From assembly GCA_964036295.1 (NCBI GenBank), contig OZ038470.1, positions 1 to 64,000 on the forward strand: 64,000 bases of DNA. Reading direction: 5' to 3'. The number at the start of each line of letters is the position of its first letter. The first letter of the stretch is position 1. This stretch comes from Plumapathes pennacea (Eukaryota > Cnidaria > Anthozoa > Antipatharia > Myriopathidae). Under the pieces are notes generated by a model, which worked only from the letters and a program-made list of their open reading frames with translations, had not been told where the DNA came from and ran no database searches. The position numbers were made by a program, and so were the translations under genes. Below, piece by piece: positions 21,900-46,915 of this stretch.

Positions 21900-21990
21900 T
21901 GTTTAACTTTCAGGCTGTACAAGACTTGTGGGAGTGGTCACACGACCACACAAGCTGTAGCTTTAAACTTTTATCGTGTATAAATAAAGG

Positions 21991-22023
<33 letters not shown>

Positions 22024-22030: not shown

Positions 22031-22169
22031 AGAAGTGATGACATCTTTTATTCAATAAACTAAGCTGTTTTTGTTCACACAGTGTTTCATGTGCAATATT
22101 TTTATATAAACATGGATACAATATTTATTATTTATTATTATTGGGACTGGATGTTACATTACGGTGCCC

Positions 22170-22634: not shown

Positions 22635-22820
22635 ATGCGTGTTAATATAAAAACAATGGCGTTTGCGTTAATGGCTACAGTTTCAACGCTCGTGTTTTCC
22701 ATTCAATCCACCTTTGCCTTTATGCAAACTGCGCCAAGCGCTTCGTGTGGTCCCGTACAGAAGACGTACGTAGTGCAGGAAGCCGCAAATTGCGTTCAAG
22801 GATTCCTACTTCGACCCAAG
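22635..22820 (+). CDS. Putative first exon with signal-peptide-like start
   Basis: From the ATG at 22635 (or the better-placed aacaATGG at 22656) the frame is open for 62 codons to a strong donor (CCCAAG/gtaagc at 22820/22821), phase 0. The second Met begins MAFALMATVSTLVFSIQSTF, a hydrophobic segment that could be a signal peptide or membrane helix, followed by a stretch with two Cys. No downstream exon was identified before the satellite begins at 24185, so the gene may be truncated, or may skip the array in an unusually long intron. No family assigned. Confidence 0.4.
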
Positions 22821-23729: not shown

Positions 23730-24184
23730 AGATATATGGGTCATTCTACAGTATTTGGTAATGCTACGGAGGGGAAAATCAGAGCATTTCAAGGCCTCTT
23801 TGACAAATTCCACAACAGCCAAATAAAATGCATATGGTATCATAGAGATTTGGGGATCCTACAACTTGAATATGTTTACTGCAGGGCTTTTATGCTGGCA
23901 GCACTAAGGGGTGAAATTTGCCCGTTAAGGAGGGGAATCAGATAATTGGCATTTTTCACTAGTTTCTTTTTGCTCTCAAATTTCTCTCAGTTTGCAACAT
24001 GGATTGAAACAAGAGTATCCTCTGATTATTTGACAGTGCATATGCTATTAATTTATTGTGATAAAAAAATTGAATTATTTGCCATTATTCAGTAAGTGCA
24101 ACTTTTAATTTCAACTAGAGTAGATCCAGTCTATAATTGACAGTGTTTTGGATAGCCAAATATCTATTGTTTCCTAAACAAAGA
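23730..24184. repeat. ~465-bp dispersed repeat, copy 2
   Basis: Direct repeat of 20938-21401 with few differences. It ends exactly where the 478-bp satellite begins, so it marks the proximal boundary of the array. Confidence 0.8.
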
Positions 24185-27100
24185 TCAGCTTACAACTTAG
24201 GGGAGTCTGGGGGATTGTCTCCCGCAAAAATGTTTAAGATTTCTGTCTCCTGAGATAGCATTTCCTGCATTTTGAAAGCGTGTTTGAGTAGTTTCTGCTG
24301 TGTAATCTGAAGGCTACACCAACATAAAATGCATAGGAAAGTTCATTATTCGTTCTGTATCTTGTGTATATGTTACGTGTGGCGGTTGCGATCCCGTTAG
24401 AGCTAAAGAGAAGGGACATTGGCAAGCGCCGGAGGCTCGAACAGGTTAGGGGCCAGGGAATGGTCCCCCGGGTCTTCTGAAATAGAGTTTGTTTTGCATT
24501 TTGAGAACATGTTTCAATAGTATTTGCTGTGTATTCTGAAGGCTTCACCAACATAAAATGCATAGAAAAGTTCATCATTCGTCTTGGATCTTATATATAT
24601 GTTTTTTGTGGTGATTGCGATCCTGTTAGGGCGGAATAGTAGGGGAAATTGCAAGCTCGGTAGGCTTGAGCAGATTAGCGGGTCCGGGCGATTGTCTCCC
24701 GCAAAAATGTTTAAGATTTCTGTCTCCTGAGATAGCATTTCCTGCACTTTGAAAACGTGTTTGAGTAGCTTGTGCTGTGTAATCTGAAGGCTACACCAAC
24801 ATAAAATGCATAGGAAAGTTCATTATTCGTTTTGTATCTTGTGTATATGTTACGTGTGTCGGTTGCCATCCCGTTAGAGCTAAATAGAAGGGACATTGGC
24901 AAGCGCCGGAGGCTCGAACAGGTTAGGGGCCAGGGAATGGTCCCCCGGATCTTCTGAAATAGAGTTTGTTTTGCATTTTGAGAACATGTTTCAATAGTAT
25001 TTGCTGCGTATTCTGAAGGCTTCACCAACATAAAATGCATAGAAAAGTTCATCATTCGTCTTGGATCTTATATATATGTTTTGTGCGGTGATTGCGATCC
25101 TGTTAGGGCGGAATAGTAGGGGAAATTGCGAGCTCGGTAGGCTTGCGCAGATTAGCGGGGTCCGGGCGATTGTCTCCCGCAAAAATGTTTAAGATTTCTG
25201 TCTCCTGAGATAGCATTTCCTGCACTTTGAAAGCGTGTTTGAGTAGCTTGTGCTGTGTAATCTGAAGGCTACACCAACATAAAATGCATAGGAAAGTTCA
25301 TTATTCGTTTTGTATCTTGTGTATATGTTACGTGTGTCGGTTGCAATCCCGTTAGAGCTAAATAGAAGGGACATTGGCAAGCGCCGGAGGCTCGAACAGG
25401 TTAGGGGCCAGGGAATGGTCCCCCGGGTCTTCTGAAATAGAATTGTTTTTGCATTTTGAGAGCATGTTTCAGTAGTATTTGCTGCGTATTCTGAAGGCTT
25501 CACCAACATAAAATGCATAGAAAAGTTCATCATTCGTCTTGGATCTTATATATATGTTTTTTGTGGTGATTGCGATCCTGTTAGGGCGGAATAGTAGGGG
25601 AAATTGCGAGCTCGGTAGGCTTGAGCAGATTAGCGGGTCCGGGCGATTGTCTCCCGCAAAAATGTTTAAGATTTCTGTCTCCTGAGATAGCATTTCCTGC
25701 ACTTTGAAAACGTGTTTGAGTAGCTTGTGCTGTGTAATCTGAAGGCTACACCAACATAAAATTCATAGGAAAGTTCATTATTCGTTTTGTATCTTGTGTA
25801 TATGTTACGTGTGTCGGTTGCCATCCCGTTAGAGCTAAATAGAAGGGACATTGGCAAGCGCCGGAGGCTCGAACAGGTTAGGGGCCAGGGAATGGTCCCC
25901 TGGGTCTTCTGAAATAGAGTTTGTTTTGCATTTTGAGAACATGTTTCAATAGTATTTGCTGCGTATTCTGAAGGCTTCACCAACATAAAATGCATAGAAA
26001 AGTTCATCATTCGTCTTGGATCTTATATATATGTTTTGTGCGGTGATTGCGATCCTGTTAGGGCGGAATAGTAGGGGAAATTGCGAGCTCGGTAGGCTTG
26101 CGCAGATTAGCGGGGTCCGGGCGATTGTCTCCCGCAAAAATGTTTAAGATTTCTGTCTCCTGAGATAGCATTTCCTGCACTTTGAAAGCGTGTTTGAGTA
26201 GCTTGTGCTGTGTAATCTGAAGGCTACACCAACATAAAATGCATAGGAAAGTTCATTATTCGTTTTGTATCTTGTGTATATGTTACGTGTGTCGGTTGCA
26301 ATCCCGTTAGAGCTAAATAGAAGGGACATTGGCAAGCGCCGGAGGCTCGAACAGGTTAGGGGCCAGGGAATGGTCCCCCGGGTCTTCTGAAATAGAATTG
26401 TTTTTGCATTTTGAGAGCATGTTTCAGTAGTATTTGCTGCGTATTCTGAAGGCTTCACCAACATAAAATGCATAGAAAAGTTCATCATTCGTCTTGGATC
26501 TTATATATATGTTTTGTGCGGTGATTGCGATCTTGTTAGGGCGGAATAGTAGGGGAAATTGCGAGCTCGGTAGGCTTGAGCAGATTAGCGGGGTCCGGGC
26601 GATTGTCTCCCGCAAAAATGTTTAAGATTTCTGTCTCCTGAGATAGCATTTCCTGCATTTTGAAAGCGTGTTTGAGTAGCTTGTGCTGTGTAATCTGAAG
26701 GCTACACCAACATAAAATGCATAGGAAAGTTCATTATTCGTTTTGTATCTTGTGTATATGTTACGTGTGTCGGTTGCGATCCCGTTAGAGCTAAATAGAA
26801 GGGACATTGGCCAGCGCCGGAGGCTCGAACAGGTTAGGGGCCAGGGAATGGTCCCCCGGGTCTTCTGAAATAGAATTGTTTTTGCATTTTGAGAGCATGT
26901 TTCAGTAGTATTTGCTGCGTATTCTGAAGGCTTCACCAACATAAAGTGCATAGAAAAGTTCATCATTCGTCTTGGATCTTATATATATGTTTTGTGCGGT
27001 GATTGCGATCCTTTTTAGGGCGGAATAGTAGGGGAAATTCCGAGCTCGGTAGGCTTGAGCAGATTAGCGGGTCCGGGCGATTGTCTCCCGCAAAAATGTT

Positions 27101-30100
27101 TAAGATTTCTGTCTCCTGAGATAGCATTTCCTGCACTTTGAAAGCGTGTTTGAGTAGCTTGTGCTGTGTAATCTGAAGGCTACACCAACATAAAATGCAT
27201 AGGAAAGTTCATTATTCGTTTTGTATCTTGTGTATATGTTACGTGTGTCGGTTGCGATCCCGTTAGAGCTAAATAGAAGGGACATTGGCAAGCGCCGGAG
27301 GCTCGAACAGGTTAGGGGCCAGGGAATGGTCCCCCGGGTCTTCTGAAATAGAATTGTTTTTGCATTTTGAGAGCATGTTTCAGTAGTATTTGCTGCGTAT
27401 TCTGAAGGCTTCACCAACATAAAATGCATAGAAAAGTTCATCATTCGTCTTGGATCTTATATATATGTTTTGTGCGGTGATTGCGATCCTGTTAGGGCGG
27501 AATAGTAGGGGAAATTGCGAGCTCGGTAGGTTTGCGCAGATTAGCGGGGTCCGGCCGATTGTCTCCCGCAAAAATGTTTAAGATTTCTGTCTCCTGAGAT
27601 AGCATTTCCTGCATTTTGATAGCGTGTTCGAGTAGTTTGTGCTGTGTAATATGAAGGCTACACCAACATAAAATTCATAGGAAAGTTCATTATTCGTTTT
27701 GTATCTTGTGTATATGTTACGTGTGTCGGTTGCGATCCCGTTAGAGCTAAAGAGAAGGGACATTGGCAAGCGCCGGAGGCTCGAACAGGTTAGGGGCCAG
27801 GGAATGGTCCCCCGGGTCTTCTGAAATAGAATTGTTTTTGCATTTTGAGAGCATGTTTCAGTAGTATTTGCTGCGTATTCTGAAGGCTTCACCAACATAA
27901 AATGCATAGAAAAGTTCATCATTCGTCTTGGATCTTATATATATGTTTTGTGCGGTGATTGCGATCCTTTTTAGGGCGGAATAGTAGGGGAAATTGCGAG
28001 CTCGGTAGGCTTGAGCAGATTAGCGGGTCCGGGCGATTGTCTCCCGCAAAAATGTTTAAGATTTCTGTCTCCTGAGATAGCATTTCCTGCACTTTGAAAG
28101 CGTGTTTAAGTAGCTTGTGCTGTGTAATCTGAAGGCTACACCAACATAAAATGCATAGGAAAGTTCATTATTCGTTTTGTATCTTGTGTATATGTTACGT
28201 GTGTCGGTTGCGATCCCGTTAGAGCTAAATAGAAGGGACATTGGCCAGCGCCGGAGGCTCGAACAGGTTAGGGGCCAGGGAATGGTCCCCCGGGTCTTCT
28301 GAAATAGAATTGTTTTTGCATTTTGAGAGCATGTTTCAGTAGTATTTGCTGCGTATTCTGAAGGCTTCACCAACATAAAATGCATAGAAAAGTTCATCAT
28401 TCGTCTTGGATCTTATATATATGTTTTGTGCGGTGATTGCGATCCTTTTTAGGGCGGAATAGTAGGGGAAATTGCGAGCTCGGTAGGCTTGAGCAGATTA
28501 GCGGGTCCGGGCGATTGTCTCCCGCAAAAATGTTTAAGATTTCTGTCTCCTGGGATAGCATTTCCTGCACTTTGAAAGCGTGTTTGAGTAGCTTGTGCTG
28601 TGTAATCTGAAGGCTACACCAACATAAAATGCATAGGAAAGTTCATTATTCGTTTTGTATCTTGTGTATATGTTACGTGTGTCGGTTGCGATCCCGTTAG
28701 AGCTAAATAGAAGGGACATTGGCCAGCGCCGGAGGCTCGAACAGGTTAGGGGCCAGGGAATGGTCCCCCGGGTCTTCTGAAATAGAATTGTTTTTGCATT
28801 TTGAGAGCATGTTTCAGTAGTATTTGCTGCGTATTCTGAAGGCTTCACCAACATAAAATGCATAGAAAAGTTCATCATTCGTCTTGGATCTTATATATAT
28901 GTTTTGTGCGGTGATTGCGATCCTGTTAGGGCGAAATAGTAGGGGAAATTGCGAGCTCGGTAGGTTTGCGCACATTAGCGGGGTCCGGCCGATTGTCTCC
29001 CGCAAAAATGTTTAAGATTTCTGTCTCCTGAGATAGCATTTCCTGCATTTTGATAGCGTGTTCGAGTAGTTTGTGCTGTGTAATATGAAGGCTACACCAA
29101 CATAAAATGCATAGGAAAGTTCATTATTCGTTTTGTATCTTGTGTATATGTTACGTGTGTCGGTTGCGATCCCGTTAGAGCTAAATAGACGGGACATTGG
29201 CAAGCGCCGGAGGCTCGAACAGGTTAGTGGCCAGGGAATGGTCCCCCGGGTCTTCTGAAATAGAATTGTTTTTGCATTTTGAGAGCATGTTTCAGTAGTA
29301 TTTGCTGCGTATTCTGAAGGCTTCACCAACATAAAATGCATAGAAAAGTTCATCATTCGTCTTGGATCTTATATATATGTTTTGTGCGGTGATTGCGATC
29401 CTTTTTAGGGCGGAATAGTAGGGGAAATTGCGAGCTCGGTAGGCTTGAGCAGATTAGCGGGTCCGGGCGATTGTCTCCCGCAAAAATGTTTAAGATTTCT
29501 GTCTCCTGGGATAGCATTTCCTGCACTTTGAAAGCGTGTTTGAGTAGCTTGTGCTGTGTAATCTGAAGGCTACACCAACATAAAATGCATAGGAAAGTTC
29601 ATTATTCGTTTTGTATCTTGTGTATATGTTACGTGTGTCGGTTGCGATCCCGTTAGAGCTAAATAGAAGGGACATTGGCCAGCGCCGGAGGCTCGAACAG
29701 GTTAGGGGCCAGGGAATGGTCCCCCGGGTCTTCTGAAATAGAAATGTTTTTGCATTTTGAGAGCATGTTTCAGTAGTATTTGCTGCGTATTCTGAAGGCT
29801 TCACCAACATAAAATGCATAGAAAAGTTCATCATTCGTCTTGGATCTTATATATATGTTTTGTGCGGTGATTGCGATCCTGTTAGGGCGGAATAGTAGGG
29901 GAAATTGCGAGCTCGGTAGGTTTCCGCAGATTTGCGGGGTCCGGGCGATTGTCTCCCGCAAAAATGTTTAAGATTTCTGTCTCCTGAGATAGCATTTCCT
30001 GCATTTTGATAGCGTGTTCGAGTAGTTTGTGCTGTGTAATATGAAGGCTACACCAACATAAAATGCATAGGAAAGTTCATTATTCGTTTTGTATCTTGTG

Positions 30101-33100
30101 TATATGTTACGTGTGGAGGTTTCGATCCCGTTAGAGCTAAAGAGAAGGGACATTGGCAAGCGCCGGAGGCTCGAACAGGTTAGGGGCCAGGGAATGGTCC
30201 CCCGGGTCTTCTGAAATAGAATTGTTTTTGCATTTTGAGAGCATGTTTCAGTAGTATTTGCTGCGTATTCTGAAGGCTTCACCAACATAAAATGCATAGA
30301 AAAGTTCATCATTCGTCTTGGATCTTATATATATGTTTTGTGCGGTGATTGCGATCTTGTTAGGGCGGAATAGTAGGGGAAATTGCGAGCTCGGTAGGCT
30401 TGAGCAGATTAGCGGGGTCCGGGCGATTGTCTCCCGCAAAAATGTTTAAGATTTCTGTCTCCTGAGATAGCATTTCCTGCATTTTGAAAGCGTGTTTGAG
30501 TAGCTTGTGCTGTGTAATCTGAAGGCTACACCAACATAAAATGCATAGGAAAGTTCATTATTCGTTTTGTATCTTGTGTATATGTTACGTGTGTCGGTTG
30601 CGATCCCGTTAGAGCTAAATAGAAGGGACATTGGCCAGCGCCGGAGGCTCGAACAGGTTAGGGGCCAGGGAATGGTCCCCCGGGTCTTCTGAAATAGAAT
30701 TGTTTTTGCATTTTGAGAGCATGTTTCAGTAGTATTTGCTGCGTATTCTGAAGGCTTCACCAACATAAAGTGCATAGAAAAGTTCATCATTCGTCTTGGA
30801 TCTTATATATATGTTTTGTGCGGTGATTGCGATCCTTTTTAGGGCGGAATAGTAGGGGAAATTGCGAGCTCGGTAGGCTTGAGCAGATTAGCGGGTCCGG
30901 GCGATTGTCTCCCGCAAAAATGTTTAAGATTTCTGTCTCCTGAGATAGCATTTCCTGCACTTTGAAAGCGTGTTTGAGTAGCTTGTGCTGTGTAATCTGA
31001 AGGCTACACCAACATAAAATGCATAGGAAAGTTCATTATTCGTTTTGTATCTTGTGTATATGTTACGTGTGTCGGTTGCGATCCCGTTAGAGCTAAATAG
31101 AAGGGACATTGGCAAGCGCCGGAGGCTCGAACAGGTTAGGGGCCAGGGAATGGTCCCCCGGGTCTTCTGAAATAGAATTGTTTTTGCATTTTGAGAGCAT
31201 GTTTCAGTAGTATTTGCTGCGTACTCTGAAGGCTTCACCAACATAAAATGCATAGAAAAGTTCATCATTCGTCTTGGATCTTATATATATGTTTTGTGCG
31301 GTGATTGCGATCCTGTTAGGGCGGAATAGTAGGGGAAATTGCGAGCTCGGTAGGTTTGCGCAGATTAGCGGGGTCCGGCCGATTGTCTCCCGCAAAAATG
31401 TTTAAGATTTCTGTCTCCTGAGATAGCATTTCCTGCATTTTGATAGCGTGTTCGAGTAGTTTGTGCTGTGTAATATGAAGGCTACACCAACATAAAATTC
31501 ATAGGAAAGTTCATTATTCGTTTTGTATCTTGTGTATATGTTACGTGTGTCGGTTGCGATCCCGTTAGAGCTAAAGAGAAGGGACATTGGCAAGCGCCGG
31601 AGGCTCGAACAGGTTAGGGGCCAGGGAATGGTCCCCCGGGTCTTCTGAAATAGAATTGTTTTTGCATTTTGAGAGCATGTTTCAGTAGTATTTGCTGCGT
31701 ATTCTGAAGGCTTCACCAACATAAAATGCATAGAAAAGTTCATCATTCGTCTTGGATCTTATATATATGTTTTGTGCGGTGATTGCGATCCTTTTTAGGG
31801 CGGAATAGTAGGGGAAATTGCGAGCTCGGTAGGCTTGAGCAGATTAGCGGGTCCGGGCGATTGTCTCCCGCAAAAATGTTTAAGATTTCTGTCTCCTGAG
31901 ATAGCATTTCCTGCACTTTGAAAGCGTGTTTAAGTAGCTTGTGCTGTGTAATCTGAAGGCTACACCAACATAAAATGCATAGGAAAGTTCATTATTCGTT
32001 TTGTATCTTGTGTATATGTTACGTGTGTCGGTTGCGATCCCGTTAGAGCTAAATAGAAGGGACATTGGCCAGCGCCGGAGGCTCGAACAGGTTAGGGGCC
32101 AGGGAATGGTCCCCCGGGTCTTCTGAAATAGAATTGTTTTTGCATTTTGAGAGCATGTTTCAGTAGTATTTGCTGCGTATTCTGAAGGCTTCACCAACAT
32201 AAAATGCATAGAAAAGTTCATCATTCGTCTTGGATCTTATATATATGTTTTGTGCGGTGATTGCGATCCTTTTTAGGGCGGAATAGTAGGGGAAATTGCG
32301 AGCTCGGTAGGCTTGAGCAGATTAGCGGGTCCGGGCGATTGTCTCCCGCAAAAATGTTTAAGATTTCTGTCTCCTGGGATAGCATTTCCTGCACTTTGAA
32401 AGCGTGTTTGAGTAGCTTGTGCTGTGTAATCTGAAGGCTACACCAACATAAAATGCATAGGAAAGTTCATTATTCGTTTTGTATCTTGTGTATATGTTAC
32501 GTGTGTCGGTTGCGATCCCGTTAGAGCTAAATAGAAGGGACATTGGCCAGCGCCGGAGGCTCGAACAGGTTAAAGGCCAGGGAATGGTCCCCCGGGTCTT
32601 CTGAAATAGAATTGTTTTTGCATTTTGAGAGCATGTTTCAGTAGTATTTGCTGCGTATTCTGAAGGCTTCACCAACATAAAATGCATAGAAAAGTTCATC
32701 ATTCGTCTTGGATCTTATATATATGTTTTGTGCGGTGATTGCGATCCTGTTAGGGCGAAATAGTAGGGGAAATTGCGAGCTCGGTAGGTTTGCGCACATT
32801 AGCGGGGTCCGGCCGATTGTCTCCCGCAAAAATGTTTAAGATTTCTGTCTCCTGAGATAGCATTTCCTGCACTTTGAAAGCGTGTTTGAGTAGCTTGTGC
32901 TGTGTAATCTGAAGGCTACACCAACATAAAATGCATAGGAAAGTTCATTATTCGTTTTGTATCTTGTGTATATGTTACGTGTGTCGGTTGCTATCCCGTT
33001 AGAGCTAAATAAAAGGGACATTGGCCAGCGCCGGAGGCTCGAACAGGTTAGGGGCCAGGGAATGGTCCCCCGGGTCTTCTGAAATAGAAATGTTTTTGCA

Positions 33101-36100
33101 TTTTGAGAGCATGTTTCAGTAGTATTTGCTGCGTATTCTGAAGGCTTCACCAACATAAAATGCATAGAAAAGTTCATCATTCGTCTTGGATCTTATATAT
33201 ATGTTTTGTGCGGTGATTGCGATCCTGTTAGGGCGGAATAGTAGGGGAAATTGCGAGCTCGGTAGGTTTCCGCAGATTTGCGGGGTCCGGGCGATTGTCT
33301 CCCGCAAAAATGTTTAAGATTTCTGTCTCCTGAGATAGCATTTCCTGCATTTTGATAGCGTGTTCGAGTAGTTTGTGCTGTGTAATCTGAAGGCTACACC
33401 AACATAAAATGCATAGGAAAGTTCATTATTCGTTTTGTATCTTGTGTATATGTTACGTGTGGAGGTTGCGATCCCGTTAGAGCTAAAGAGAAGGGACATT
33501 GGCAAGCGCCGGAGGCTCGAACAGGTTAGGGGCCAGGGAATGGTCCCCCGGGTCTTCTGAAATAGAATTGTTTTTGCATTTTGAGAGCATGTTTCAGTAG
33601 TATTTGCTGCGTATTCTGAAGGCTTCACCAACATAAAATGCATAGAAAAGTTCATCATTCGTCTTGGATCTTATATATATGTTTTGTGCGGTGATTGCGA
33701 TCTTGTTAGGGCGGAATAGTAGGGGAAATTGCGAGCTCGGTAGGCTTGAGCAGATTAGCGGGGTCCGGGCGATTGTCTCCCGCAAAAATGTTTAAGATTT
33801 CTGTCTCCTGAGATAGCATTTCCTGCATTTTGAAAGCGTGTTTGAGTAGCTTGTGCTGTGTAATCTGAAGGCTACACCAACATAAAATGCATAGGAAAGT
33901 TCATTATTCGTTTTGTATCTTGTGTATATGTTACGTGTGTCGGTTGCGATCCCGTTAGAGCTAAATAGAAGGGACATTGGCCAGCGCCGGAGGCTCGAAC
34001 AGGTTAGGGGCCAGGGAATGGTCCCCCGGGTCTTCTGAAATAGAATTGTTTTTGCATTTTGAGAGCATGTTTCAGTAGTATTTGCTGCGTATTCTGAAGG
34101 CTTCACCAACATAAAATGCATAGAAAAGTTCATCATTCGTCTTGGATCTTATATATATGTTTTGTGCGGTGATTGCGATCCTGTTAGGGCGGAATAGTAG
34201 GGGAAATTGCGAGCTCGGTAGGTTTGCGCAGATTAGCGGGGTCCGGCCGATTGTCTCCCGCAAAAATGTTTAAGATTTCTGTCTCCTGAGATAGCATTTC
34301 CTGCATTTTGATAGCGTGTTCGAGTAGTTTGTGCTGTGTAATATGAAGGCTACACCAACATAAAATTCATAGGAAAGTTCATTATTCGTTTTGTATCTTG
34401 TGTATATGTTACGTGTGTCGGTTGCGATCCCGTTAGAGCTAAAGAGAAGGGACATTGGCAAGCGCCGGAGGCTCGAACAGGTTAGGGGCCAGGGAATGGT
34501 CCCCCGGGTCTTCTGAAATAGAATTGTTTTTGCATTTTGAGAGCATGTTTCAGTAGTATTTGCTGCGTATTCTGAAGGCTTCACCAACATAAAATGCATA
34601 GAAAAGTTCATCATTCGTCTTGGATCTTATATATATGTTTTGTGCGGTGATTGCGATCCTTTTTAGGGCGGAATAGTAGGGGAAATTGCGAGCTCGGTAG
34701 GCTTGAGCAGATTAGCGGGTCCGGGCGATTGTCTCCCGCAAAAATGTTTAAGATTTCTGTCTCCTGAGATAGCATTTCCTGCACTTTGAAAGCGTGTTTA
34801 AGTAGCTTGTGCTGTGTAATCTGAAGGCTACACCAACATAAAATGCATAGGAAAGTTCATTATTCGTTTTGTATCTTGTGTATATGTTACGTGTGTCGGT
34901 TGCGATCCCGTTAGAGCTAAATAGAAGGGACATTGGCCAGCGCCGGAGGCTCGAACAGGTTAGGGGCCAGGGAATGGTCCCCCGGGTCTTCTGAAATAGA
35001 ATTGTTTTTGCATTTTGAGAGCATGTTTCAGTAGTATTTGCTGCGTATTCTGAAGGCTTCACCAACATAAAATGCATAGAAAAGTTCATCATTCGTCTTG
35101 GATCTTATATATATGTTTTGTGCGGTGATTGCGATCCTTTTTAGGGCGGAATAGTAGGGGAAATTGCGAGCTCGGTAGGCTTGAGCAGATTAGCGGGTCC
35201 GGGCGATTGTCTCCCGCAAAAATGTTTAAGATTTCTGTCTCCTGGGATAGCATTTCCTGCACTTTGAAAGCGTGTTTGAGTAGCTTGTGCTGTGTAATCT
35301 GAAGGCTACACCAACATAAAATGCATAGGAAAGTTCATTATTCGTTTTGTATCTTGTGTATATGTTACGTGTGTCGGTTGCGATCCCGTTAGAGCTAAAT
35401 AGAAGGGACATTGGCCAGCGCCGGAGGCTCGAACAGGTTAAAGGCCAGGGAATGGTCCCCCGGGTCTTCTGAAATAGAATTGTTTTTGCATTTTGAGAGC
35501 ATGTTTCAGTAGTATTTGCTGCGTATTCTGAAGGCTTCACCAACATAAAATGCATAGAAAAGTTCATCATTCGTCTTGGATCTTATATATATGTTTTGTG
35601 CGGTGATTGCGATCCTGTTAGGGCGAAATAGTAGGGGAAATTGCGAGCTCGGTAGGTTTGCGCACATTAGCGGGGTCCGGCCGATTGTCTCCCGCAAAAA
35701 TGTTTAAGATTTCTGTCTCCTGAGATAGCATTTCCTGCACTTTGAAAGCGTGTTTGAGTAGCTTGTGCTGTGTAATCTGAAGGCTACACCAACATAAAAT
35801 GCATAGGAAAGTTCATTATTCGTTTTGTATCTTGTGTATATGTTACGTGTGTCGGTTGCTATCCCGTTAGAGCTAAATAGAAGGGACATTGGCCAGCGCC
35901 GGAGGCTCGAACAGGTTAGGGGCCAGGGAATGGTCCCCCGGGTCTTCTGAAATAGAAATGTTTTTGCATTTTGAGAGCATGTTTCAGTAGTATTTGCTGC
36001 GTATTCTGAAGGCTTCACCAACATAAAATGCATAGAAAAGTTCATCATTCGTCTTGGATCTTATATATATGTTTTGTGCGGTGATTGCGATCCTGTTAGG

Positions 36101-39100
36101 GCGGAATAGTAGGGGAAATTGCGAGCTCGGTAGGTTTCCGCAGATTTGCGGGGTCCGGGCGATTGTCTCCCGCAAAAATGTTTAAGATTTCTGTCTCCTG
36201 AGATAGCATTTCCTGCATTTTGATAGCGTGTTCGAGTAGTTTGTGCTGTGTAATCTGAAGGCTACACCAACATAAAATGCATAGGAAAGTTCATTATTCG
36301 TTTTGTATCTTGTGTATATGTTACGTGTGGAGGTTGCGATCCCGTTAGAGCTAAAGAGAAGGGACATTGGCAAGCGCCGGAGGCTCGAACAGGTTAGGGG
36401 CCAGGGAATGGTCCCCCGGGTCTTCTGAAATAGAATTGTTTTTGCATTTTGAGAGCATGTTTCAGTAGTATTTGCTGCGTATTCTGAAGGCTTCACCAAC
36501 ATAAAATGCATAGAAAAGTTCATCATTCGTCTTGGATCTTATATATATGTTTTGTGCGGTGATTGCGATCTTGTTAGGGCGGAATAGTAGGGGAAATTGC
36601 GAGCTCGGTAGGCTTGAGCAGATTAGCGGGGTCCGGGCGATTGTCTCCCGCAAAAATGTTTAAGATTTCTGTCTCCTGAGATAGCATTTCCTGCATTTTG
36701 AAAGCGTGTTTGAGTAGCTTGTGCTGTGTAATCTGAAGGCTACACCAACATAAAATGCATAGGAAAGTTCATTATTCGTTTTGTATCTTGTGTATATGTT
36801 ACGTGTGTCGGTTGCGATCCCGTTAGAGCTAAATAGAAGGGACATTGGCCAGCGCCGGAGGCTCGAACAGGTTAGGGGCCAGGGAATGGTCCCCCGGGTC
36901 TTCTGAAATAGAATTGTTTTTGCATTTTGAGAGCATGTTTCAGTAGTATTTGCTGCGTATTCTGAAGGCTTCACCAACATAAAGTGCATAGAAAAGTTCA
37001 TCATTCGTCTTGGATCTTATATATATGTTTTGTGCGGTGATTGCGATCCTGTTAGGGCGGAGTAGTAGGGGAAATTGCGAGCTCGGTAGGCTTGAGCAGA
37101 TTAGCGGGGTCCGGGCGATTGTCTCCCGCAAAAATGTTTAAGATTTCTGTCTCCTGAGATAGCATTTCCTGCATTTTGATAGCGTGTTCGAGTAGTTTGT
37201 GCTGTGTAATATGAAGGCTACACCAACATAAAATGCATAGGAAAGTTCATTATTCGTTTTGTATCTTGTGTATATGTTACGTGTGGAGGTTGCGATCCCG
37301 TTAGAGCTAAAGAGAAGGGACATTGGCAAGCGCCGGAGGCTCGAACAGGTTAGGGGCCAGGGAATGGTCCCCCGGGTCTTCTGAAATAGAATTGTTTTTG
37401 CATTTTGAGAGCATGTTTCAGTAGTACTTGCTGCGTATTCTGAAGGCTTCACCAACATAAAATGCATAGAAAAGTTCATCATTCGTCTTGAATCTTATAT
37501 ATATGTTTTGTGCGGTGATTGCGATCTTGTTAGGGCGGAATAGTAGGGGAAATTGCGAGCTCGGTAGGCTTGAGCAGATTAGCGGGGTCCGGGCGATTGT
37601 CTCCCGCAAAAATGTTTAAGATTTCTGTCTCCTGAGATAGCATTTCCTGCATTTTGAAAGCGTGTTTGAGTAGCTTGTGCTGTGTAATCTGAAGGCTACA
37701 CCAACATAAAATGCATAGGAAAGTTCATTATTCGTTTTGTATCTTGTGTATATGTTACGTGTGTCGGTTGCGATCCCGTTAGAGCTAAATAGACGGGACA
37801 TTGGCAAGCGCCGGAGGCTCGAACAGGTTAGTGGCCAGGGAATGGTCCCCCGGGTCTTCTGAAATAGAATTGTTTTTGCATTTTGAGAGCATGTTTCAGT
37901 AGTATTTGCTGCGTATTCTGAAGGCTTCACCAACATAAAATGCATAGAAAAGTTCATCATTCGTCTTGGATCTTATATATATGTTTTGTGCGGTGATTGC
38001 GATCCTTTTTAGGGCGGAATAGTAGGGGAAAATGCGAGCTCGGTAGGCTTGAGCAGATTAGCGGGTCCGGGCGATTGTCTCCCGCAAAAATGTTTAAGAT
38101 TTCTGTCTCCTGAGATAGCATTTCCTGCACTTTGAAAGCGTGTTTGAGTAGCTTGTGCTGTGTAATCTGAAGGCTACACCAACATAAAATGCATAGGAAA
38201 GTTCATTATTCGTTTTGTATCTTGTGTATATGTTACGTGTGTCGGTTGCGATCCCGTTAGAGCTGAATAGAAGGGACATTGGCCAGCGCCGGAGGCTCGA
38301 ACAGGTTAGGGGCCAGGGAATGGTCCCCCGGGTCTTCTGAAATAGAATTGTTTTTGCATTTTGAGAGCATGTTTCAGTAGTATTTGCTGCGTATTCTGAA
38401 GGCTTCACCAACATACAATGCATAGAAAAGTTCATCATTCGTCTTGGATCTTATATATATGTTTTGTGCGGTGATTGCGATCCTGTTAGGGCGGAATAGT
38501 AGGGGAAATTGCGAGCTCGGTAGGTTTGCGCAGATTAGCGGGGTCCGGGCGATTGTCTCCCGCAAAAATGTTTAAGATTTCTGTCTCCTGAGATAGCATT
38601 TCCTGCATTTTGATAGCGTGTTCGAGTAGTTTGTGCTGTGTAATCTGAAGGCTACACCAACATAAAATGCATAGGAAAGTTCATTATTCGTTTTGTATCT
38701 TGTGTATATGTTACGTGTGTCGGTTGCGATCCCGTTAGAGCTAAATAGAAGGGACATTGGCCAGCGCCGGAGGCTCGAACAGGTTAGGGGCCAGGGAATG
38801 GTCCCCCGGGTCTTCTGAAATAGAATTGTTTTTGCATTTTGAGAGCATGTTTCAGTAGTATTTGCTGCGTATTCTGAAGGCTTCACCAACATAAAGTGCA
38901 TAGAAAAGTTCATCATTCGTCTTGGATCTTATATATATGTTTTGTGCGGTGATTGCGATCCTTTTTAGGGCGGAATAGTAGGGGAAATTGCGAGCTCGGT
39001 AGGCTTGAGCAGATTAGCGGGTCCGGGCGATTGTCTCCCGCAAAAATGTTTAAGATTTCTGTCTCCTGAGATAGCATTTCCTGCACTTTGAAAGCGTGTT

Positions 39101-42100
39101 TGAGTAGCTTGTGCTGTGTAATCTGAAGGCTACACCAACATAAAATGCATAGGAAAGTTCATTATTCGTTTTGTATCTTGTGTATATGTTACGTGTGTCG
39201 GTTGCGATCCCGTTAGAGCTAAATAGAAGGGACATTGGCAAGCGCCGGAGGCTCGAACAGGTTAGGGGCCAGGGAATGGTCCCCCGGGTCTTCTGAAATA
39301 GAATTGTTTTTGCATTTTGAGAGCATGTTTCAGTAGTATTTGCTGCGTATTCTGAAGGCTTCACCAACATAAAATGCATAGAAAAGTTCATCATTCGTCT
39401 TGGATCTTATATATATGTTTTGTGCGGTGATTGCGATCCTGTTAGGGCGGAATAGTAGGGGAAATTGCGAGCTCGGTAGGTTTGCGCAGATTAGCGGGGT
39501 CCGGCCGATTGTCTCCCGCAAAAATGTTTAAGATTTCTGTCTCCTGAGATAGCATTTCCTGCATTTTGATAGCGTGTTCGAGTAGTTTGTGCTGTGTAAT
39601 ATGAAGGCTACACCAACATAAAATTCATAGGAAAGTTCATTATTCGTTTTGTATCTTGTGTATATGTTACGTGTGTCGGTTGCGATCCCGTTAGAGCTAA
39701 AGAGAAGGGACATTGGCAAGCGCCGGAGGCTCGAACAGGTTAGGGGCCAGGGAATGGTCCCCCGGGTCTTCTGAAATAGAATTGTTTTTGCATTTTGAGA
39801 GCATGTTTCAGTAGTATTTGCTGCGTATTCTGAAGGCTTCACCAACATAAAATGCATAGAAAAGTTCATCATTCGTCTTGGATCTTATATATATGTTTTG
39901 TGCGGTGATTGCGATCCTTTTTAGGGCGGAATAGTAGGGGAAATTGCGAGCTCGGTAGGCTTGAGCAGATTAGCGGGTCCGGGCGATTGTCTCCCGCAAA
40001 AATGTTTAAGATTTCTGTCTCCTGAGATAGCATTTCCTGCACTTTGAAAGCGTGTTTAAGTAGCTTGTGCTGTGTAATCTGAAGGCTACACCAACATAAA
40101 ATGCATAGGAAAGTTCATTATTCGTTTTGTATCTTGTGTATATGTTACGTGTGTCGGTTGCGATCCCGTTAGAGCTAAATAGAAGGGACATTGGCCAGCG
40201 CCGGAGGCTCGAACAGGTTAGGGGCCAGGGAATGGTCCCCCGGGTCTTCTGAAATAGAATTGTTTTTGCATTTTGAGAGCATGTTTCAGTAGTATTTGCT
40301 GCGTATTCTGAAGGCTTCACCAACATAAAATGCATAGAAAAGTTCATCATTCGTCTTGGATCTTATATATATGTTTTGTGCGGTGATTGCGATCCTTTTT
40401 AGGGCGGAATAGTAGGGGAAATTGCGAGCTCGGTAGGCTTGAGCAGATTAGCGGGTCCGGGCGATTGTCTCCCGCAAAAATGTTTAAGATTTCTGTCTCC
40501 TGGGATAGCATTTCCTGCACTTTGAAAGCGTGTTTGAGTAGCTTGTGCTGTGTAATCTGAAGGCTACACCAACATAAAATGCATAGGAAAGTTCATTATT
40601 CGTTTTGTATCTTGTGTATATGTTACGTGTGTCGGTTGCGATCCCGTTAGAGCTAAATAGAAGGGACATTGGCCAGCGCCGGAGGCTCGAACAGGTTAGG
40701 GGCCAGGGAATGGTCCCCCGGGTCTTCTGAAATAGAATTGTTTTTGCATTTTGAGAGCATGTTTCAGTAGTATTTGCTGCGTATTCTGAAGGCTTCACCA
40801 ACATAAAATGCATAGAAAAGTTCATCATTCGTCTTGGATCTTATATATATGTTTTGTGCGGTGATTGCGATCCTGTTAGGGCGAAATAGTAGGGGAAATT
40901 GCGAGCTCGGTAGGTTTGCGCACATTAGCGGGGTCCGGCCGATTGTCTCCCGCAAAAATGTTTAAGATTTCTGTCTCCTGAGATAGCATTTCCTGCATTT
41001 TGATAGCGTGTTCGAGTAGTTTGTGCTGTGTAATATGAAGGCTACACCAACATAAAATGCATAGGAAAGTTCATTATTCGTTTTGTATCTTGTGTATATG
41101 TTACGTGTGTCGGTTGCGATCCCGTTAGAGCTAAATAGACGGGACATTGGCAAGCGCCGGAGGCTCGAACAGGTTAGTGGCCAGGGAATGGTCCCCCGGG
41201 TCTTCTGAAATAGAATTGTTTTTGCATTTTGAGAGCATGTTTCAGTAGTATTTGCTGCGTATTCTGAAGGCTTCACCAACATAAAATGCATAGAAAAGTT
41301 CATCATTCGTCTTGGATCTTATATATATGTTTTGTGCGGTGATTGCGATCCTTTTTAGGGCGGAATAGTAGGGGAAATTGCGAGCTCGGTAGGCTTGAGC
41401 AGATTAGCGGGTCCGGGCTATTGTCTCCCGCAAAAATGTTTAAGATTTCTGTCTCCTGAGATAGCATTTCCTGCACTTTGAAAGCGTGTTTGAGTAGCTT
41501 GTGCTGTGTAATCTGAAGGCTACACCAACATAAAATGCATAGGAAAGTTCATTATTCGTTTTGTATCTTGTGTATATGTTACGTGTGTCGGTTGCGATCC
41601 CGTTAGAGCTAAAGAGAAAGGACATTGGCAAGCGCCGGAGGCTCGAACAGGTTAGGGGCCAGGGAATGGTCCCCCGGGTCTTCTGAAATAGAATTGTTTT
41701 TGCATTTTGAGAGCATGTTTCAGTAGTATTTGCTGCGTATTCTGAAGGCTTCACCAACATAAAATGCATAGAAAAGTTCATCATTCGTCTTGGATCTTAT
41801 ATATATGTTTTGTGCGGTGATTGCGATCCTTTTTAGGGCGGAATAGTAGGGGAAATTGCGAGCTCGGTAGGCTTGAGCAGATTAGCGGGTCCGGGCGATT
41901 GTCTCCCGCAAAAATGTTTAAGATTTCTGTCTCCTGAGATAGCATTTCCTGCACTTTGAAAGCGTGTTTGAGTAGCTTGTGCTGTGTAATCTGAAGGCTA
42001 CACCAACATAAAATGCATAGGAAAGTTCATTATTCGTTTTGTATCTTGTGTATATGTTACGTGTGTCGGTTGCGATCCCGTTAGAGCTAAATAGAAGGGA

Positions 42101-45100
42101 CATTGGCCAGCGCCGGAGGCTCGAACAGGTTAGGGGCCAGGGAATGGTCCCCCGGGTCTTCTGAAATAGAATTGTTTTTGCATTTTGAGAGCATGTTTCA
42201 GTAGTATTTGCTGCGTATTCTGAAGGCTTCACCAACATAAAATGCATAGAAAAGTTCATCATTCGTCTTGGATCTTATATATATGTTTTGTGCGGTGATT
42301 GCGATCCTGTTAGGGCGGAATAGTAGGGGAAATTGCGAGCTCGGTAGGTTTGCGCAGATTAGCGGGGTCCGGGCGATTGTCTCCCGCAAAAATGTTTAAG
42401 ATTTCTGTCTCCTGAGATAGCATTTCCTGCACTTTGAAAGCGTGTTTGAGTAGCTTGTGCTGTGTAATCTGAAGGCTACACCAACATAAAATGCATAGGA
42501 AAGTTCATTATTCGTTTTGTATCTTGTGTATATGTTACGTGTGTCGGTTGCTATCCCGTTAGAGCTAAATAGAAGGGACATTGGCCAGCGCCGGAGGCTC
42601 GAACAGGTTAGGGGCCAGGGAATGGTCCCCCGGGTCTTCTGAAATAGAAATGTTTTTGCATTTTGAGAGCATGTTTCAGTAGTATTTGCTGCGTATTCTG
42701 AAGGCTTCACCAACATAAAATGCATAGAAAAGTTCATCATTCGTCTTGGATCTTATATATATGTTTTGTGCGGTGATTGCGATCCTGTTAGGGCGGAATA
42801 GTAGGGGAAATTGCGAGCTCGGTAGGTTTCCGCAGATTTGCGGGGTCCGGGCGATTGTCTCCCGCAAAAATGTTTAAGATTTCTGTCTCCTGAGATAGCA
42901 TTTCCTGCATTTTGATAGCGTGTTCGAGTAGTTTGTGCTGTGTAATCTGAAGGCTACACCAACATAAAATGCATAGGAAAGTTCATTATTCGTTTTGTAT
43001 CTTGTGTATATGTTACGTGTGGAGGTTGCGATCCCGTTAGAGCTAAAGAGAAGGGACATTGGCAAGCGCCGGAGGCTCGAACAGGTTAGGGGCCAGGGAA
43101 TGGTCCCCCGGGTCTTCTGAAATAGAATTGTTTTTGCATTTTGAGAGCATGTTTCAGTAGTATTTCCTGCGTATTCTGAAGGCTTCACCAACATAAAATG
43201 CATAGAAAAGTTCATCATTCGTCTTGGATCTTATATATATGTTTTGTGCGGTGATTGCGATCTTGTTAGGGCGGAATAGTAGGGGAAATTGCGAGCTCGG
43301 TAGGCTTGAGCAGATTAGCGGGGTCCGGGCGATTGTCTCCCGCAAAAATGTTTAAGATTTCTGTCTCCTGAGATAGCATTTCCTGCATTTTGAAAGCGTG
43401 TTTGAGTAGCTTGTGCTGTGTAATCTGAAGGCTACACCAACATAAAATGCATAGGAAAGTTCATTATTCGTTTTGTATCTTGTGTATATGTTACGTGTGT
43501 CGGTTGCGATCCCGTTAGAGCTAAATAGAAGGGACATTGGCCAGCGCCGGAGGCTCGAACAGGTTAGGGGCCAGGGAATGGTCCCCCGGGTCTTCTGAAA
43601 TAGAATTGTTTTTGCATTTTGAGAGCATGTTTCAGTAGTATTTGCTGCGTATTCTGAAGGCTTCACCAACATAAAGTGCATAGAAAAGTTCATCATTCGT
43701 CTTGGATCTTATATATATGTTTTGTGCGGTGATTGCGATCCTGTTAGGGCGGAGTAGTAGGGGAAATTGCGAGCTCGGTAGGCTTGAGCAGATTAGCGGG
43801 GTCCGGGCGATTGTCTCCCGCAAAAATGTTTAAGATTTCTGTCTCCTGAGATAGCATTTCCTGCATTTTGATAGCGTGTTCGAGTAGTTTGTGCTGTGTA
43901 ATATGAAGGCTACACCAACATAAAATGCATAGGAAAGTTCATTATTCGTTTTGTATCTTGTGTATATGTTACGTGTGGAGGTTGCGATCCCGTTAGAGCT
44001 AAAGAGAAGGGACATTGGCAAGCGCCGGAGGCTCGAACAGGTTAGGGGCCAGGGAATGGTCCCCCGGGTCTTCTGAAATAGAATTGTTTTTGCATTTTGA
44101 GAGCATGTTTCAGTAGTACTTGCTGCGTATTCTGAAGGCTTCACCAACATAAAATGCATAGAAAAGTTCATCATTCGTCTTGAATCTTATATATATGTTT
44201 TGTGCGGTGATTGCGATCTTGTTAGGGCGGAATAGTAGGGGAAATTGCGAGCTCGGTAGGCTTGAGCAGATTAGCGGGGTCCGGGCGATTGTCTCCCGCA
44301 AAAATGTTTAAGATTTCTGTCTCCTGAGATAGCATTTCCTGCATTTTGAAAGCGTGTTTGAGTAGCTTGTGCTGTGTAATCTGAAGGCTACACCAACATA
44401 AAATGCATAGGAAAGTTCATTATTCGTTTTGTATCTTGTGTATATGTTACGTGTGTCGGTTGCGATCCCGTTAGAGCTGAATAGAAGGGACATTGGCCAG
44501 CGCCGGAGGCTCGAACAGGTTAGGGGCCAGGGAATGGTCCCCCGGGTCTTCTGAAATAGAATTGTTTTTGCATTTTGAGAGCATGTTTCAGTAGTATTTG
44601 CTGCGTATTCTGAAGGCTTCACCAACATAAAATGCATAGAAAAGTTCATCATTCGTCTTGGATCTTATATATATGTTTTGTGCGGTGATTGCGATCCTTT
44701 TTAGGGCGGAATAGTAGGGGAAATTGCGAGCTCGGTAGGCTTGAGCAGATTAGCGGGTCCGGGCGATTGTCTCCCGCAAAAATGTTTAAGATTTCTGTCT
44801 CCTGAGATAGCATTTCCTGCACTTTGAAAGCGTGTTTGAGTAGCTTGTGCTGTGTAATCTGAAGGCTACACCAACATAAAATGCATAGGAAAGTTCATTA
44901 TTCGTTTTGTATCTTGTGTATATGTTACGTGTGTCGGTTGCGATCCCGTTAGAGCTAAATAGAAGGGACATTGGCAAGCGCCGGAGGCTCGAACAGGTTA
45001 GGGGCCAGGGAATGGTCCCCCGGGTCTTCTGAAATAGAATTGTTTTTGCATTTTGAGAGCATGTTTCAGTAGTATTTGCTGCGTATTCTGAAGGCTTCAC

Positions 45101-46139
45101 CAACATAAAATGCATAGAAAAGTTCATCATTCGTCTTGGATCTTATATATATGTTTTGTGCGGTGATTGCGATCCTTTTTAGGGCGGAATAGTAGGGGAA
45201 ATTGCGAGCTCGGTAGGCTTGAGCAGATTAGCGGGTCCGGGCGATTGTCTCCCGCAAAAATGTTTAAGATTTCTGTCTCCTGAGATAGCATTTCCTGCAC
45301 TTTGAAAGCGTGTTTGAGTAGCTTGTGCTGTGTAATCTGAAGGCTACACCAACATAAAATGCATAGGAAAGTTCATTATTCGTTTTGTATCTTGTGTATA
45401 TGTTACGTGTGTCGGTTGCGATCCCGTTAGAGCTGAATAGAAGGGACATTGGCCAGCGCCGGAGGCTCGAACAGGTTAGGGGCCAGGAAATGGTCCCCCG
45501 GGTCTTCTGAAATAGAATTGTTTTTGCATTTTGAGAGCATGTTTCAGTAGTATTTGCTGCGTATTCTGAAGGCTTCACCAACATAAAGTGCATAGAAAAG
45601 TTCATCATTCGTCTTGGATCTTATATATATGTTTTGTGCGGTGATTGCGATCCTTTTTAGGGCGGAATAGTAGGGGAAATTGCGAGCTCGGTAGGCTTGA
45701 GCAGATTAGCGGGTCCGGGCGATTGTCTCCCGCAAAAATGTTTAAGATTTCTGTCTCCTGAGATAGCATTTCCTGCACTTTGAAAGCGTGTTTGAGTAGC
45801 TTGTGCTGTGTAATCTGAAGGCTACACCAACATAAAATGCATAGGAAAGTTCATTATTCGTTTTGTATCTTGTGTATATGTTACGTGTGTCGGTTGCGAT
45901 CCCGTTAGAGCTAAAAAGAAGGGACATTGGCAAGCGCCGGAGGCTCGAACAGGTTAGGGGCCAGGGAATGGTCCCCCGGGTCTTCTGAAGTAGAATTGTT
46001 TTTGCATTTTGAGAGCATGTTTCAGTAGTATTTGCTGTGTATTCTGAAGGCTTCACCAACATAAAATGCATAGAAAAGTTCATCATTCGTTTTGTATCTT
46101 GTGTATATATTACGTGTGGTGGGTGCGATCTCGTTAGAG
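24185..46139. repeat. 478-bp satellite array, 46 units, dimeric
   Basis: Units repeat every 477-478 bp from 24234 to 45742 by the start of the motif following gcaaaaatgtttaag. Each unit is a dimer: half A (gatttctgtctcctgag ... ggtccccc) and half B (gggtcttctgaaatag ... gtctcccgcaaa) are about 237 and 241 bp, and share gcattttga, tgctgtgta/tgctgcgta, gaaggct(t/a)caccaacataaaatgcatag, attcgt(t/c)tt and gtgattgcgatcc. Central units are extremely similar; the first unit and the last two are most diverged. Each unit carries a 114-codon minus-strand open frame and often a 63-codon one over half B. I treat these as by-products of homogenisation, because the differences between units usually change amino acids and 478 is not a multiple of 3. 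Confidence 0.97.
31402..37137. repeat. Six-unit higher-order repeat (2868 bp), two tandem copies
   Basis: Units starting at 31402, 31880, 32358, 32836, 33314 and 33792 carry a series of private variants that recurs in the same order at 34270, 34748, 35226, 35704, 36182 and 36660. For example, ttaaaggcc replaces ttaggggcc at 32571 and at 35439, 2868 bp apart. Agreement is lost in half B of the sixth unit. Confidence 0.85.
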
Positions 46140-46915
46140 CTAAATAGAAGGGAGTTTTGAGATTGCCTCACACTTGAGCAGCCTAGGGTGGTCCGGGGGA
46201 TGGTTCCCCGGTAAAATGTTTAAGATTTCTGTTTTCTGATATAGCATTTCCTGCATTTTGAGAGCGTGTGTCACAGTATGTGCTGTGTAATCTCAAGGCT
46301 ATACCAACTTAAAATGCATAGTAAAGTTTGACATTCGTTTTGTATTTTGTATGTGTTTTGTGCAGTGATTGAGACCCTGTAAGAGCAAAATAGTAGGGAG
46401 ATTTTCGAGCGCCGGAGGCTCGAGCAGCTTAGGGAGGTCTGGCGGGAAAATTTTAAAATTTTAATTTTCCAAGATAGGGTTTTTGCATTTTAAAGCGTGT
46501 ATCAGTAATATATATTGTGTAATCTTAAGGTTTCACCAACATAAAATGCATAGAAAAGTTCGTTATTCGTGTTGTATTTTATATATAGGTTTTGTGTGAT
46601 TACCATACTGTTAGAGCAGAATAGTAGGGAGATTTGTGAGCTCTGCAGGCTCAAAGACATTGGGGTATCTGGGGGATGGTCCCCCGCGAAAATTTTTAAG
46701 ATTTGTGTCTCCTGAGATAGCTTTTCCTGCAGTTTGATAGCGTGTTTCAGTAGTATGTACTGTGTAATCTGCAGGCTTCACCAACATAAAATGTATAGAA
46801 TTTAAGCGCAATACTGGTTTTGTATTTTAAATTTAAGTTTGGTGCGGTGATTGCGATCCCGTTAGAGCAGACTAGTATGGAGATTTGCGAGCGCCGGAGG
46901 CTCGAACAGCTTAGG
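46140..46915. repeat. Decayed satellite monomers at array edge
   Basis: About three further monomers with the same block order (ctcgagcagcttaggg, gcattttaaagcgtgt, tttcaccaacataaaatgca, ttgcgatcccgttagagc) but many substitutions and deletions, and without the strict A/B alternation. This is the usual picture of an array edge no longer reached by unequal exchange. Confidence 0.9.

What the first reader, a model, noticed from the sequence alone, without database searches (positions are those of the whole stretch)
24185..46139. 22-kb satellite whose 478-bp unit is a dimer of ~239-bp monomers
Forty-six units keep strict A-B alternation, and A and B remain clearly homologous but distinct. A fixed two-monomer unit of this length in a subtelomere is a satellite type I do not recognise. 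Its sequence may be lineage-specific and could mark chromosome ends or a subterminal or centromere-like domain.
Basis: partly seen in the sequence, partly recalled or inferred. Interest (0 to 1): 0.7.

Follow-up and report, generated by a model that had tools for sequence, protein, structure and literature searches.

The report
Chromosome-end satellite built from dimers
A 478-letter DNA repeat made of two related halves is stacked near several chromosome ends of what looks like an early-branching animal; it is a chromosome-end satellite of a familiar kind, and many of the other ends sampled carry a different, unrelated repeat instead.

Summary
Confirmed. Window 24197-46163 holds 46 head-to-tail 478-bp units alternating A (249 bp) and B (229 bp), 77.5% identical over aligned columns; 239 bp is only their mean. 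Genome probes show a subtelomeric family of roughly 0.26 Mb at 8 of 24 chromosome ends (C7L, C9L, C9R, C10L, C10R, C11L, C12L, C12R) plus an interstitial C6 site; 8 of 8 end arrays point the same way relative to the telomere. A telomere-side duplicon is shared, wholly or partly, at 95-99% identity. The dimer is not fixed elsewhere: C12L repeats (AB)3A, and C7L, C10L and C6 show breaks in alternation. Arrays at both ends of C9, C10 and C12 argue against a centromere. An unrelated, equally polarised 335-337-bp satellite marks 10 other ends, mostly of larger chromosomes; both ends agree on 7 of 7 fully typed chromosomes (post hoc P 0.004 and 0.012; thin evidence for C4). Best explanation: a non-coding subtelomeric satellite homogenised by unequal exchange and spread between ends with its duplicon. 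New member of a known kind; the end-class partition is the better lead.

The parts
1..6866 (.). telomere, mostly (AACCCT)n; the last about 100 bp (6770-6866) are inverted (TAGGGT)
   Evidence: TRF; first bases of contig C9
6867..9961 (.). telomere-proximal tandem repeats: 148-bp unit (7020-7681) and 50-bp unit (about 8129-9961)
   Evidence: TRF; self-comparison; the 50-bp block recurs in tiles at C10L, C12L and C12R
9962..24196 (.). subtelomeric block on the telomere side of the array; 14114-24147 matches C9R at 98%, and all or part of 19800-24190 matches six further ends and the C6 site at 95-99%
19003..19204 (+). solitary diverged monomer of the same family inside the block (73-76% identical to array units)
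24197..46163 (+). 478-bp satellite array: 46 dimers of A (249 bp) and B (229 bp); last unit a B/A hybrid
24197..24445 (+). first A monomer (249 bp)
24446..24673 (+). first B monomer (228 bp in this unit; consensus 229)
46164..46915 (+). three degenerate monomers, 66-78% identical to the A or B consensus
46917..47569 (+). 200-bp tandem repeat (3.3 copies) abutting the array on the centromere side; family found mostly near ends
56730..57302 (-). thioredoxin-domain exon or pseudo-exon (protein disulphide isomerase-like by recall) in the inner flank; not part of the satellite
   Evidence: Pfam PF00085 E=4.2e-17

Best explanation
A non-coding subtelomeric satellite. An old monomer family of about 230-250 bp diverged into two kinds, A and B. 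An A-B pair became the unit of amplification by unequal crossing-over, giving 478-bp dimers; C12L amplified (AB)3A instead. The array together with its telomere-side duplicon was copied between chromosome ends by ectopic exchange or break-induced replication, keeping its orientation to the telomere, which is what copying outward to the chromosome end would produce. Shown here: dimer structure, A/B ancestry shared by the five arrays compared, block duplications within the window's array, shared duplicon and junctions, polarity, degenerate inner edge. Inferred: the exchange mechanism, and that the array is a tolerated, probably heterochromatic spacer without a sequence-specific role.
For: 46 of 46 window units alternate A-B. 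Array-level A consensuses from C7L, C9L, C10L, C11L and C12L are 95.6-100% alike and B 93.9-99.6%, while A against B is 68-72.5%, so the split predates spread. Runs of 4-5 units recur at offsets 6, 8, 14, 17 and 25 with at most 3 differences per unit; mean agreement at offsets 20 and 14 exceeds the 99th percentile of 500 unit-order permutations; the first and last units are the most divergent. The telomere-side flank 19800-24190 matches at 95-99% at C9R, C11L, C10L, C12L, C7L and C12R, and its outer 1.7 kb at C10R and C6. The centromere-side junction is shared by 5 ends. Polarity: 5 of 5 left-end arrays forward, 3 of 3 right-end arrays reverse. C10L and C11L share 85-88% of 26-mers, C7L and the other left-end arrays 28-42%, so arrays homogenise locally. 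No Rfam hit in the array. The recurrent 118-aa ORF reaches no Pfam gathering score (best E=0.039), and 7% of 200 shuffled tandems hold an ORF as long. Degenerate monomers lie inward of arrays at several ends.
Against: No chromatin, FISH or population data. Array lengths rest on one assembly and on sampled tiles. The C6 copy lies 3 Mb inside its contig end, further fragments lie at C6:21.2-22.9 Mb, and monomers occur at C12:4.07 Mb and C8:5.88 Mb, so the family is not strictly subtelomeric. Six of 24 ends could not be typed. B holds a CENP-B-box-like site with 1 mismatch. A role in telomere maintenance or pairing is not excluded.
Confidence: 0.85

Rival explanations
1. Functional chromosome-end element: the array (transcribed or protein-bound) buffers genes from the telomere, supports recombination-based telomere maintenance, or helps end pairing and clustering at meiosis.
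For: Polarity at 8 of 8 ends, and a repeated order of duplicon, array and 200-bp repeat. In the consensus the A-to-B boundary reads GGTTAGGG, a telomere-like motif.
Against: Polarity and position are also expected from copying of ends. Ten other ends carry an unrelated satellite instead. The telomere-like motif is short and could be chance. One unit folds no better than shuffles (z = +1.29).
Confidence: 0.12
2. Centromeric or pericentromeric satellite of acrocentric chromosomes, as with dimeric alpha satellite.
For: Dimer and higher-order organisation resembles alpha satellite (PMC8122249 passages). B holds a CENP-B-box-like site with 1 mismatch in the 9 fixed bases (about 0.1 such sites expected in both strands of the unit by simple arithmetic).
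Against: Arrays at both ends of C9, C10 and C12; no exact core on C1-C5 or C8 in the contig-ordered list; no exact CENP-B box.
Confidence: 0.03
3. Assembly artefact: over-expanded or misplaced repeat, or the same array placed at several ends by scaffolding.
For: Several contig ends sampled show no telomere, and three tiles are all N; C9L and C9R are 97-98% alike where compared.
Against: Arrays differ in length, unit variants and monomer order between ends, and C9L runs without N from the telomere through the array to 64 kb.
Confidence: 0.03

Closest known systems
khipu, subtelomeric satellite of common bean (PMC3797529; abstract and passages seen)
   Same: Long unit (528 bp); uneven distribution among ends; related units on many non-homologous ends; local duplication plus exchange; a few copies away from the ends.
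   Different: The word 'dimer' does not occur in its main text; plant; no sequence was compared.
CL14 and CL34, subtelomeric satellites of potato (PMC3276127; abstract seen)
   Same: Two satellite families (182 and 339 bp) at the chromosome ends of one species.
   Different: In potato both can sit at the same end and can touch the telomere. Here the two types were not found together in any sampled terminal stretch, and this array is about 17 kb from the telomere repeats.
Alpha satellite suprachromosomal families 1-2 (PMC8122249; passages seen)
   Same: Two alternating monomers differing by up to about 30%, shared by several chromosomes; chromosome-specific higher-order repeats elsewhere in the family; older monomers beside the arrays (last point recalled).
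   Different: Centromeric, about 171-bp monomers (recalled), CENP-B boxes in one of the two units.
Human subtelomeric duplicons (PMC2323237; search listing only)
   Same: Near-identical blocks shared by many chromosome ends.
   Different: Not tied to a satellite of this kind (recalled).
Subtelomeric repeat expansion in the hydrozoan Hydractinia (Kon et al. 2025; title seen in a reference list only; paper not held)
   Same: By its title, repeats expanded near chromosome ends of a non-bilaterian animal.
   Different: Not read; unit and arrangement could not be compared.

Membership tests
subtelomeric satellite DNA | long head-to-tail tandem array of one unit | tested here: met
subtelomeric satellite DNA | located near telomeres of several chromosomes | tested here: met
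   8 of 24 ends; also one interstitial array on C6
subtelomeric satellite DNA | non-coding | tested here: met
   no Rfam hit in the array at gathering scores; no Pfam family at its gathering score for the three ORFs tested; 118-aa ORF matched by 7% of shuffles. No transcript data.
subtelomeric satellite DNA | heterochromatic, visible as terminal FISH signals | not testable with these tools
   needs cells or ChIP data
centromeric dimeric satellite (alpha-satellite-like) | alternating dimer or higher-order organisation | tested here: met
   organisation only
centromeric dimeric satellite (alpha-satellite-like) | one location per chromosome, on all chromosomes | tested here: not met
   both ends of C9, C10 and C12; no exact core on C1-C5 or C8 in the contig-ordered list
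centromeric dimeric satellite (alpha-satellite-like) | CENP-B box | tested here: not met
   no exact match in the consensus; one site in B with 1 mismatch (motif recalled)
known catalogued satellite (Repbase/Dfam entry, khipu, CL14/CL34) | sequence similarity to the catalogued unit | not testable with these tools
   no repeat library or eukaryote collection held
rDNA, tRNA or other RNA gene array | RNA family match inside each unit | tested here: not met
   the only Rfam hit in 6700-64000 is a tRNA-like match at 18612-18678; ARAGORN 0 genes

The most novel reading that the evidence does not exclude
Chromosome ends of this animal fall into two separate exchange pools with their own satellite: smaller chromosomes (C7, C9-C12) carry the 478-bp dimer, larger ones (C1, C3-C6, C8) an unrelated 335-337-bp satellite, and both ends of a chromosome are of one type (7 of 7 typed at both ends). 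Ends would exchange sequence mainly with ends of chromosomes of similar length and with the other end of the same chromosome, so nuclear geometry (for instance bouquet clustering) sets which ends homogenise together. C6, of intermediate size and with an interstitial 478-bp array 3 Mb from a 336-type end, would be a chromosome that changed pool.
Probability: 0.3. Interest if true: 0.62.

Novelty: new member of a known kind. Interest (0 to 1): 0.42.

Why it matters
Subtelomeric satellites are described mostly from plants and vertebrates (recalled; one hydrozoan paper known by title only). Here an assembly of what looks like a non-bilaterian animal shows how a dimer arises, spreads with a duplicon, and turns into a different higher-order repeat on another chromosome. 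The split of chromosome ends into two satellite classes by size, if it holds, gives a testable case for how chromosome length limits exchange between ends.

Tried and rejected
Considered and rejected: RNA-gene array (Rfam, ARAGORN); protein-coding unit; centromere. Origin from a dispersed element: the solitary monomer at 19003-19204 lies beside a palindromic repeat that is genome-wide, but among 61 monomer matches (40 of 331 candidates scored) only C12:4.07 Mb and C8:5.88 Mb lie far from the ends, apart from those on C6:20.4-22.9 Mb; a dispersed origin is not excluded. CpG depletion as a mark of germline methylation: inner flank CpG o/e 0.25-0.45, array 0.97, but other fetched nuclear tiles range from 0.40 to 1.36, partly because they are another satellite, so no conclusion.

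DNA-similarity searches with array sequence were unreliable: skipped common words and missed the window's own array, so exact-pattern probes were used. Lists are capped at 100 places.

Organism: not identified. Contig C24 (17,711 bp) is a mitochondrial genome that reads with TGA=W and has a LAGLIDADG ORF within cox1. [quoted passage not shown] Searches by pseudomolecule number, mitochondrial length and phylum showed no matching genome paper (0 papers; 30 of 38 listed; 12 of 13 listed). Literature searches for such a satellite (0 papers; 20 of 21 listed; 15 of 185; 15 of 113; 10 of 43) gave mainly plant, insect and vertebrate analogues. The Hydractinia paper was seen only as a title and is not held. 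Therizols et al. 2010 on yeast arm length and subtelomeres was seen only as a citation (in a paper found) and is not held.

Full report
Observation. The window is the first 64 kb of contig C9 in a 290-Mb assembly of 24 contigs. Lengths returned show 12 chromosome-sized contigs (14.9-42.4 Mb); the seven small contigs whose length was returned are 102.4 kb or less. TRF gives a telomere at 1-6866 and an array of period 478 from 24197 to 46915. Forty-six unit starts lie at steps of 478 (43) or 477 (2). Every unit splits into A (249 bp) and B (229 bp; 228 in 2 of 46). Consensus A and B are 77.5% identical over 227 aligned columns. Units are 97.2% identical on average, with little trend by distance: 0.972 at distance 1, 0.969 at 30, 0.959 at 40. 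Lag-478 identity is 0.910 against a background maximum of 0.300. The finding's 239 bp is the mean of 249 and 229.

Edges. The telomere-side edge is abrupt. On the centromere side the last unit turns into a B/A hybrid, and three degenerate monomers (66-78% identity to A or B) follow before a 200-bp tandem repeat at 46917-47569. A solitary monomer lies at 19003-19204 inside the telomere-side block.

Genome distribution. An exact 20-mer present in both A and B occurs 408 times forward and 490 times reverse, with 0 in the reversed-pattern control. Only the first 100 places are listed. They run in contig order and start on C6, then C7, then C9, so on that reading C1-C5 and C8 hold no exact copy. 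Tiles at 25-35 kb of 11 left ends are 85-100% satellite at C7, C10, C11 and C12 (C12L with a 1.8-kb interruption) and hold none at C1-C6 and C8. Further probes and tiles place arrays at C9R, C10R and C12R, and a 6-kb array at C6:20.365-20.372 Mb. The estimated total is 260,570 bp, 0.09% of the assembly. It assumes arrays run unbroken between sampled points, and three of the nine lengths are taken only to the last sampled point. Orientation is forward at 5 of 5 left ends and reverse at 3 of 3 right ends; the C6 copy is reverse.

Neighbourhood. The 4.4 kb on the telomere side of the array matches at 95-99% at C9R, C11L, C10L, C12L, C7L and C12R (in one or two pieces); at C10R and the C6 site mainly the outer 1.7 kb matches. 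C9L and C9R also match at 98% over 10 kb on the telomere side and 97% over 3 kb at window 61-64 kb. The inner junction with the 200-bp repeat is shared by C9L, C9R, C10L, C10R and C11L. The 200-bp family is mostly within about 210 kb of contig ends, with further copies on C6 at 0.5-2.1 Mb and on C10 at 1.1 Mb from the end (24 of 162 candidates scored). The C6 copy breaks off at a point corresponding to window position about 15.6 kb, and no telomere was seen in four 600-base tiles over the next 15 kb.

Units on other ends. In the sampled 10-kb tiles, C11L is strict A-B and C7L has one B-B step. In C10L 40 of 40 classified monomers alternate, but the last spacing in the tile and 249-bp steps near 37.6, 42.0 and 43.2 kb break the alternation. 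C12L repeats (AB)3A, a seven-monomer unit of 1,683 bp supported by probe spacing in its first half; spacing is less regular after about 39 kb. Array-level A consensuses are 95.6-100% alike, B 93.9-99.6%, A to B 68-72.5%, so A and B split before the arrays spread (monomers under 85% identity to either consensus were left out). C10L and C11L share 85-88% of 26-mers; C7L and the other four left-end arrays share 28-42%. Inside the window's array, runs of 4-5 units recur at offsets 6, 8, 14, 17 and 25 with at most 3 differences per unit, and offsets 20 and 14 exceed the 99th percentile of 500 permutations. These are the marks of unequal exchange of multi-unit blocks.

Second satellite. Left-end tiles of C1, C3, C5 and C8 and the first 3 kb of the C6L tile are filled by a 335-337-bp satellite. 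It is also at the last 600 bases of C6R and C8R and 30 kb from C5R (telomere confirmed at that end); a probe places it at 123-164 kb and at 27.08-27.09 Mb of C4. The C4 placements rest on 27 and 2 exact probe hits; the C4L tile at 25-35 kb and the outermost tiles of C4 do not hold it, and one C4R tile is N. No similarity to the 478-bp unit was found (E cut-off 1), but 32 bp match the 200-bp repeat at 87.5%. It too points one way relative to the telomere at 10 of 10 ends; reverse matches at C3L are a 31-bp box repeated within the unit. Typed ends: 8 with the 478-bp repeat, 10 with the other, 6 untyped. Seven chromosomes have both ends typed and all 7 agree (P = 35/3003 = 0.012); the second satellite sits on larger chromosomes, except that C8 is smaller than C7 (rank-sum P = 2/462 = 0.004). 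Without C4 the figures are 6 of 6 (P = 0.022) and 2/252 = 0.008. All these tests are post hoc, and ends were sampled by tiles and probes, not read through. The second satellite is absent from the whole window and from the 10-kb tiles of C7L, C10L, C11L and C12L. The probe marks a rare variant (34 hits: 29 on C4, 3 on C6, 2 on C8, none on C1, C3 or C5 although they carry the satellite), so its silence on C7 and C9-C12 is weak evidence. C6 is mixed: 336-type at both ends, with 478-type material inside.

Mechanism. The evidence fits a satellite that changes by unequal exchange within arrays and is carried between ends with its duplicon. Polarity follows if an end is repaired by copying another end outward to its telomere. 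That step is inferred; no rate or intermediate was seen. The array has no Rfam match and no Pfam family at its gathering score for the three ORFs tested. A 118-aa ORF recurs 45 times on the minus strand, as long as in 7% of shuffled tandems. There is no exact CENP-B box, but B holds one site with 1 mismatch. One unit folds no better than shuffles (z = +1.29). A function in end protection or pairing is possible but unsupported.

Known kinds. Plant khipu (528 bp; PMC3797529, abstract and passages) and potato CL14/CL34 (PMC3276127, abstract) are close analogues in place and behaviour. Alpha satellite families 1-2 are the analogue in dimer structure (PMC8122249 passages). Membership in 'subtelomeric satellite' is met on the features testable here; membership in 'centromeric satellite' fails on location and on an exact CENP-B box. 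Identity with a catalogued repeat could not be tested.

Organism. Not named by the tools. The mitochondrial contig reads with TGA=W and has a LAGLIDADG ORF in cox1, which points to a sponge, cnidarian or similar animal; this is an inference.

Noticed in passing
L017, L019, L021, L022, L024 (left ends of C1, C3, C5, C6, C8); C4:123-164 kb: A second, unrelated 335-337-bp subtelomeric satellite, telomere-polarised, mostly on larger chromosomes; on C5L TRF also fits a 1,683-bp period (5 units), by coincidence the same length as the C12L seven-monomer unit of the 478 family.
   Followed up: partly
G000:C6:20365365-20378114: Array plus duplicon lie 3 Mb inside C6, oriented as at a right end, broken at a point matching window position about 15.6 kb; more 200-bp and monomer fragments at C6:21.2-22.9 Mb. 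Could be an internalised former chromosome end.
   Followed up: partly
window 14114-24147 and 61044-64000 versus C9:17300001-17350000: The two ends of C9 match each other at 97-98%, both on the telomere side of the array and 14-17 kb inward of it.
   Followed up: partly
window 18682-18974: Palindromic dispersed repeat (about 290 bp; copies at 92-94% identity listed on each of C1-C11, 40 of 3020 candidates scored); a tRNA-like Rfam match lies just beside it (18612-18678).
   Followed up: no
window 20945-21322: A 380-bp dispersed repeat at 93-95% identity on C1-C3, C5, C6 and C9-C12.
   Followed up: no
C24 (L036): Mitochondrial genome of 17,711 bp (first 10 kb read) with a LAGLIDADG ORF between the two parts of cox1; order cox3-cox1-nad4L-cox2-nad4-nad6-atp6 read from translations (cox1, cox3, atp6 and the endonuclease confirmed by Pfam; the others by eye).
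   Followed up: partly
L028 and L030 (C13, C15); L031, L034, L035 (C16, C17, C20): In the 10 kb read of each: C13 and C15 are a 365-bp tandem repeat; C16, C17 and C20 share long near-identical stretches with short 31-32-bp repeats.
   Followed up: no
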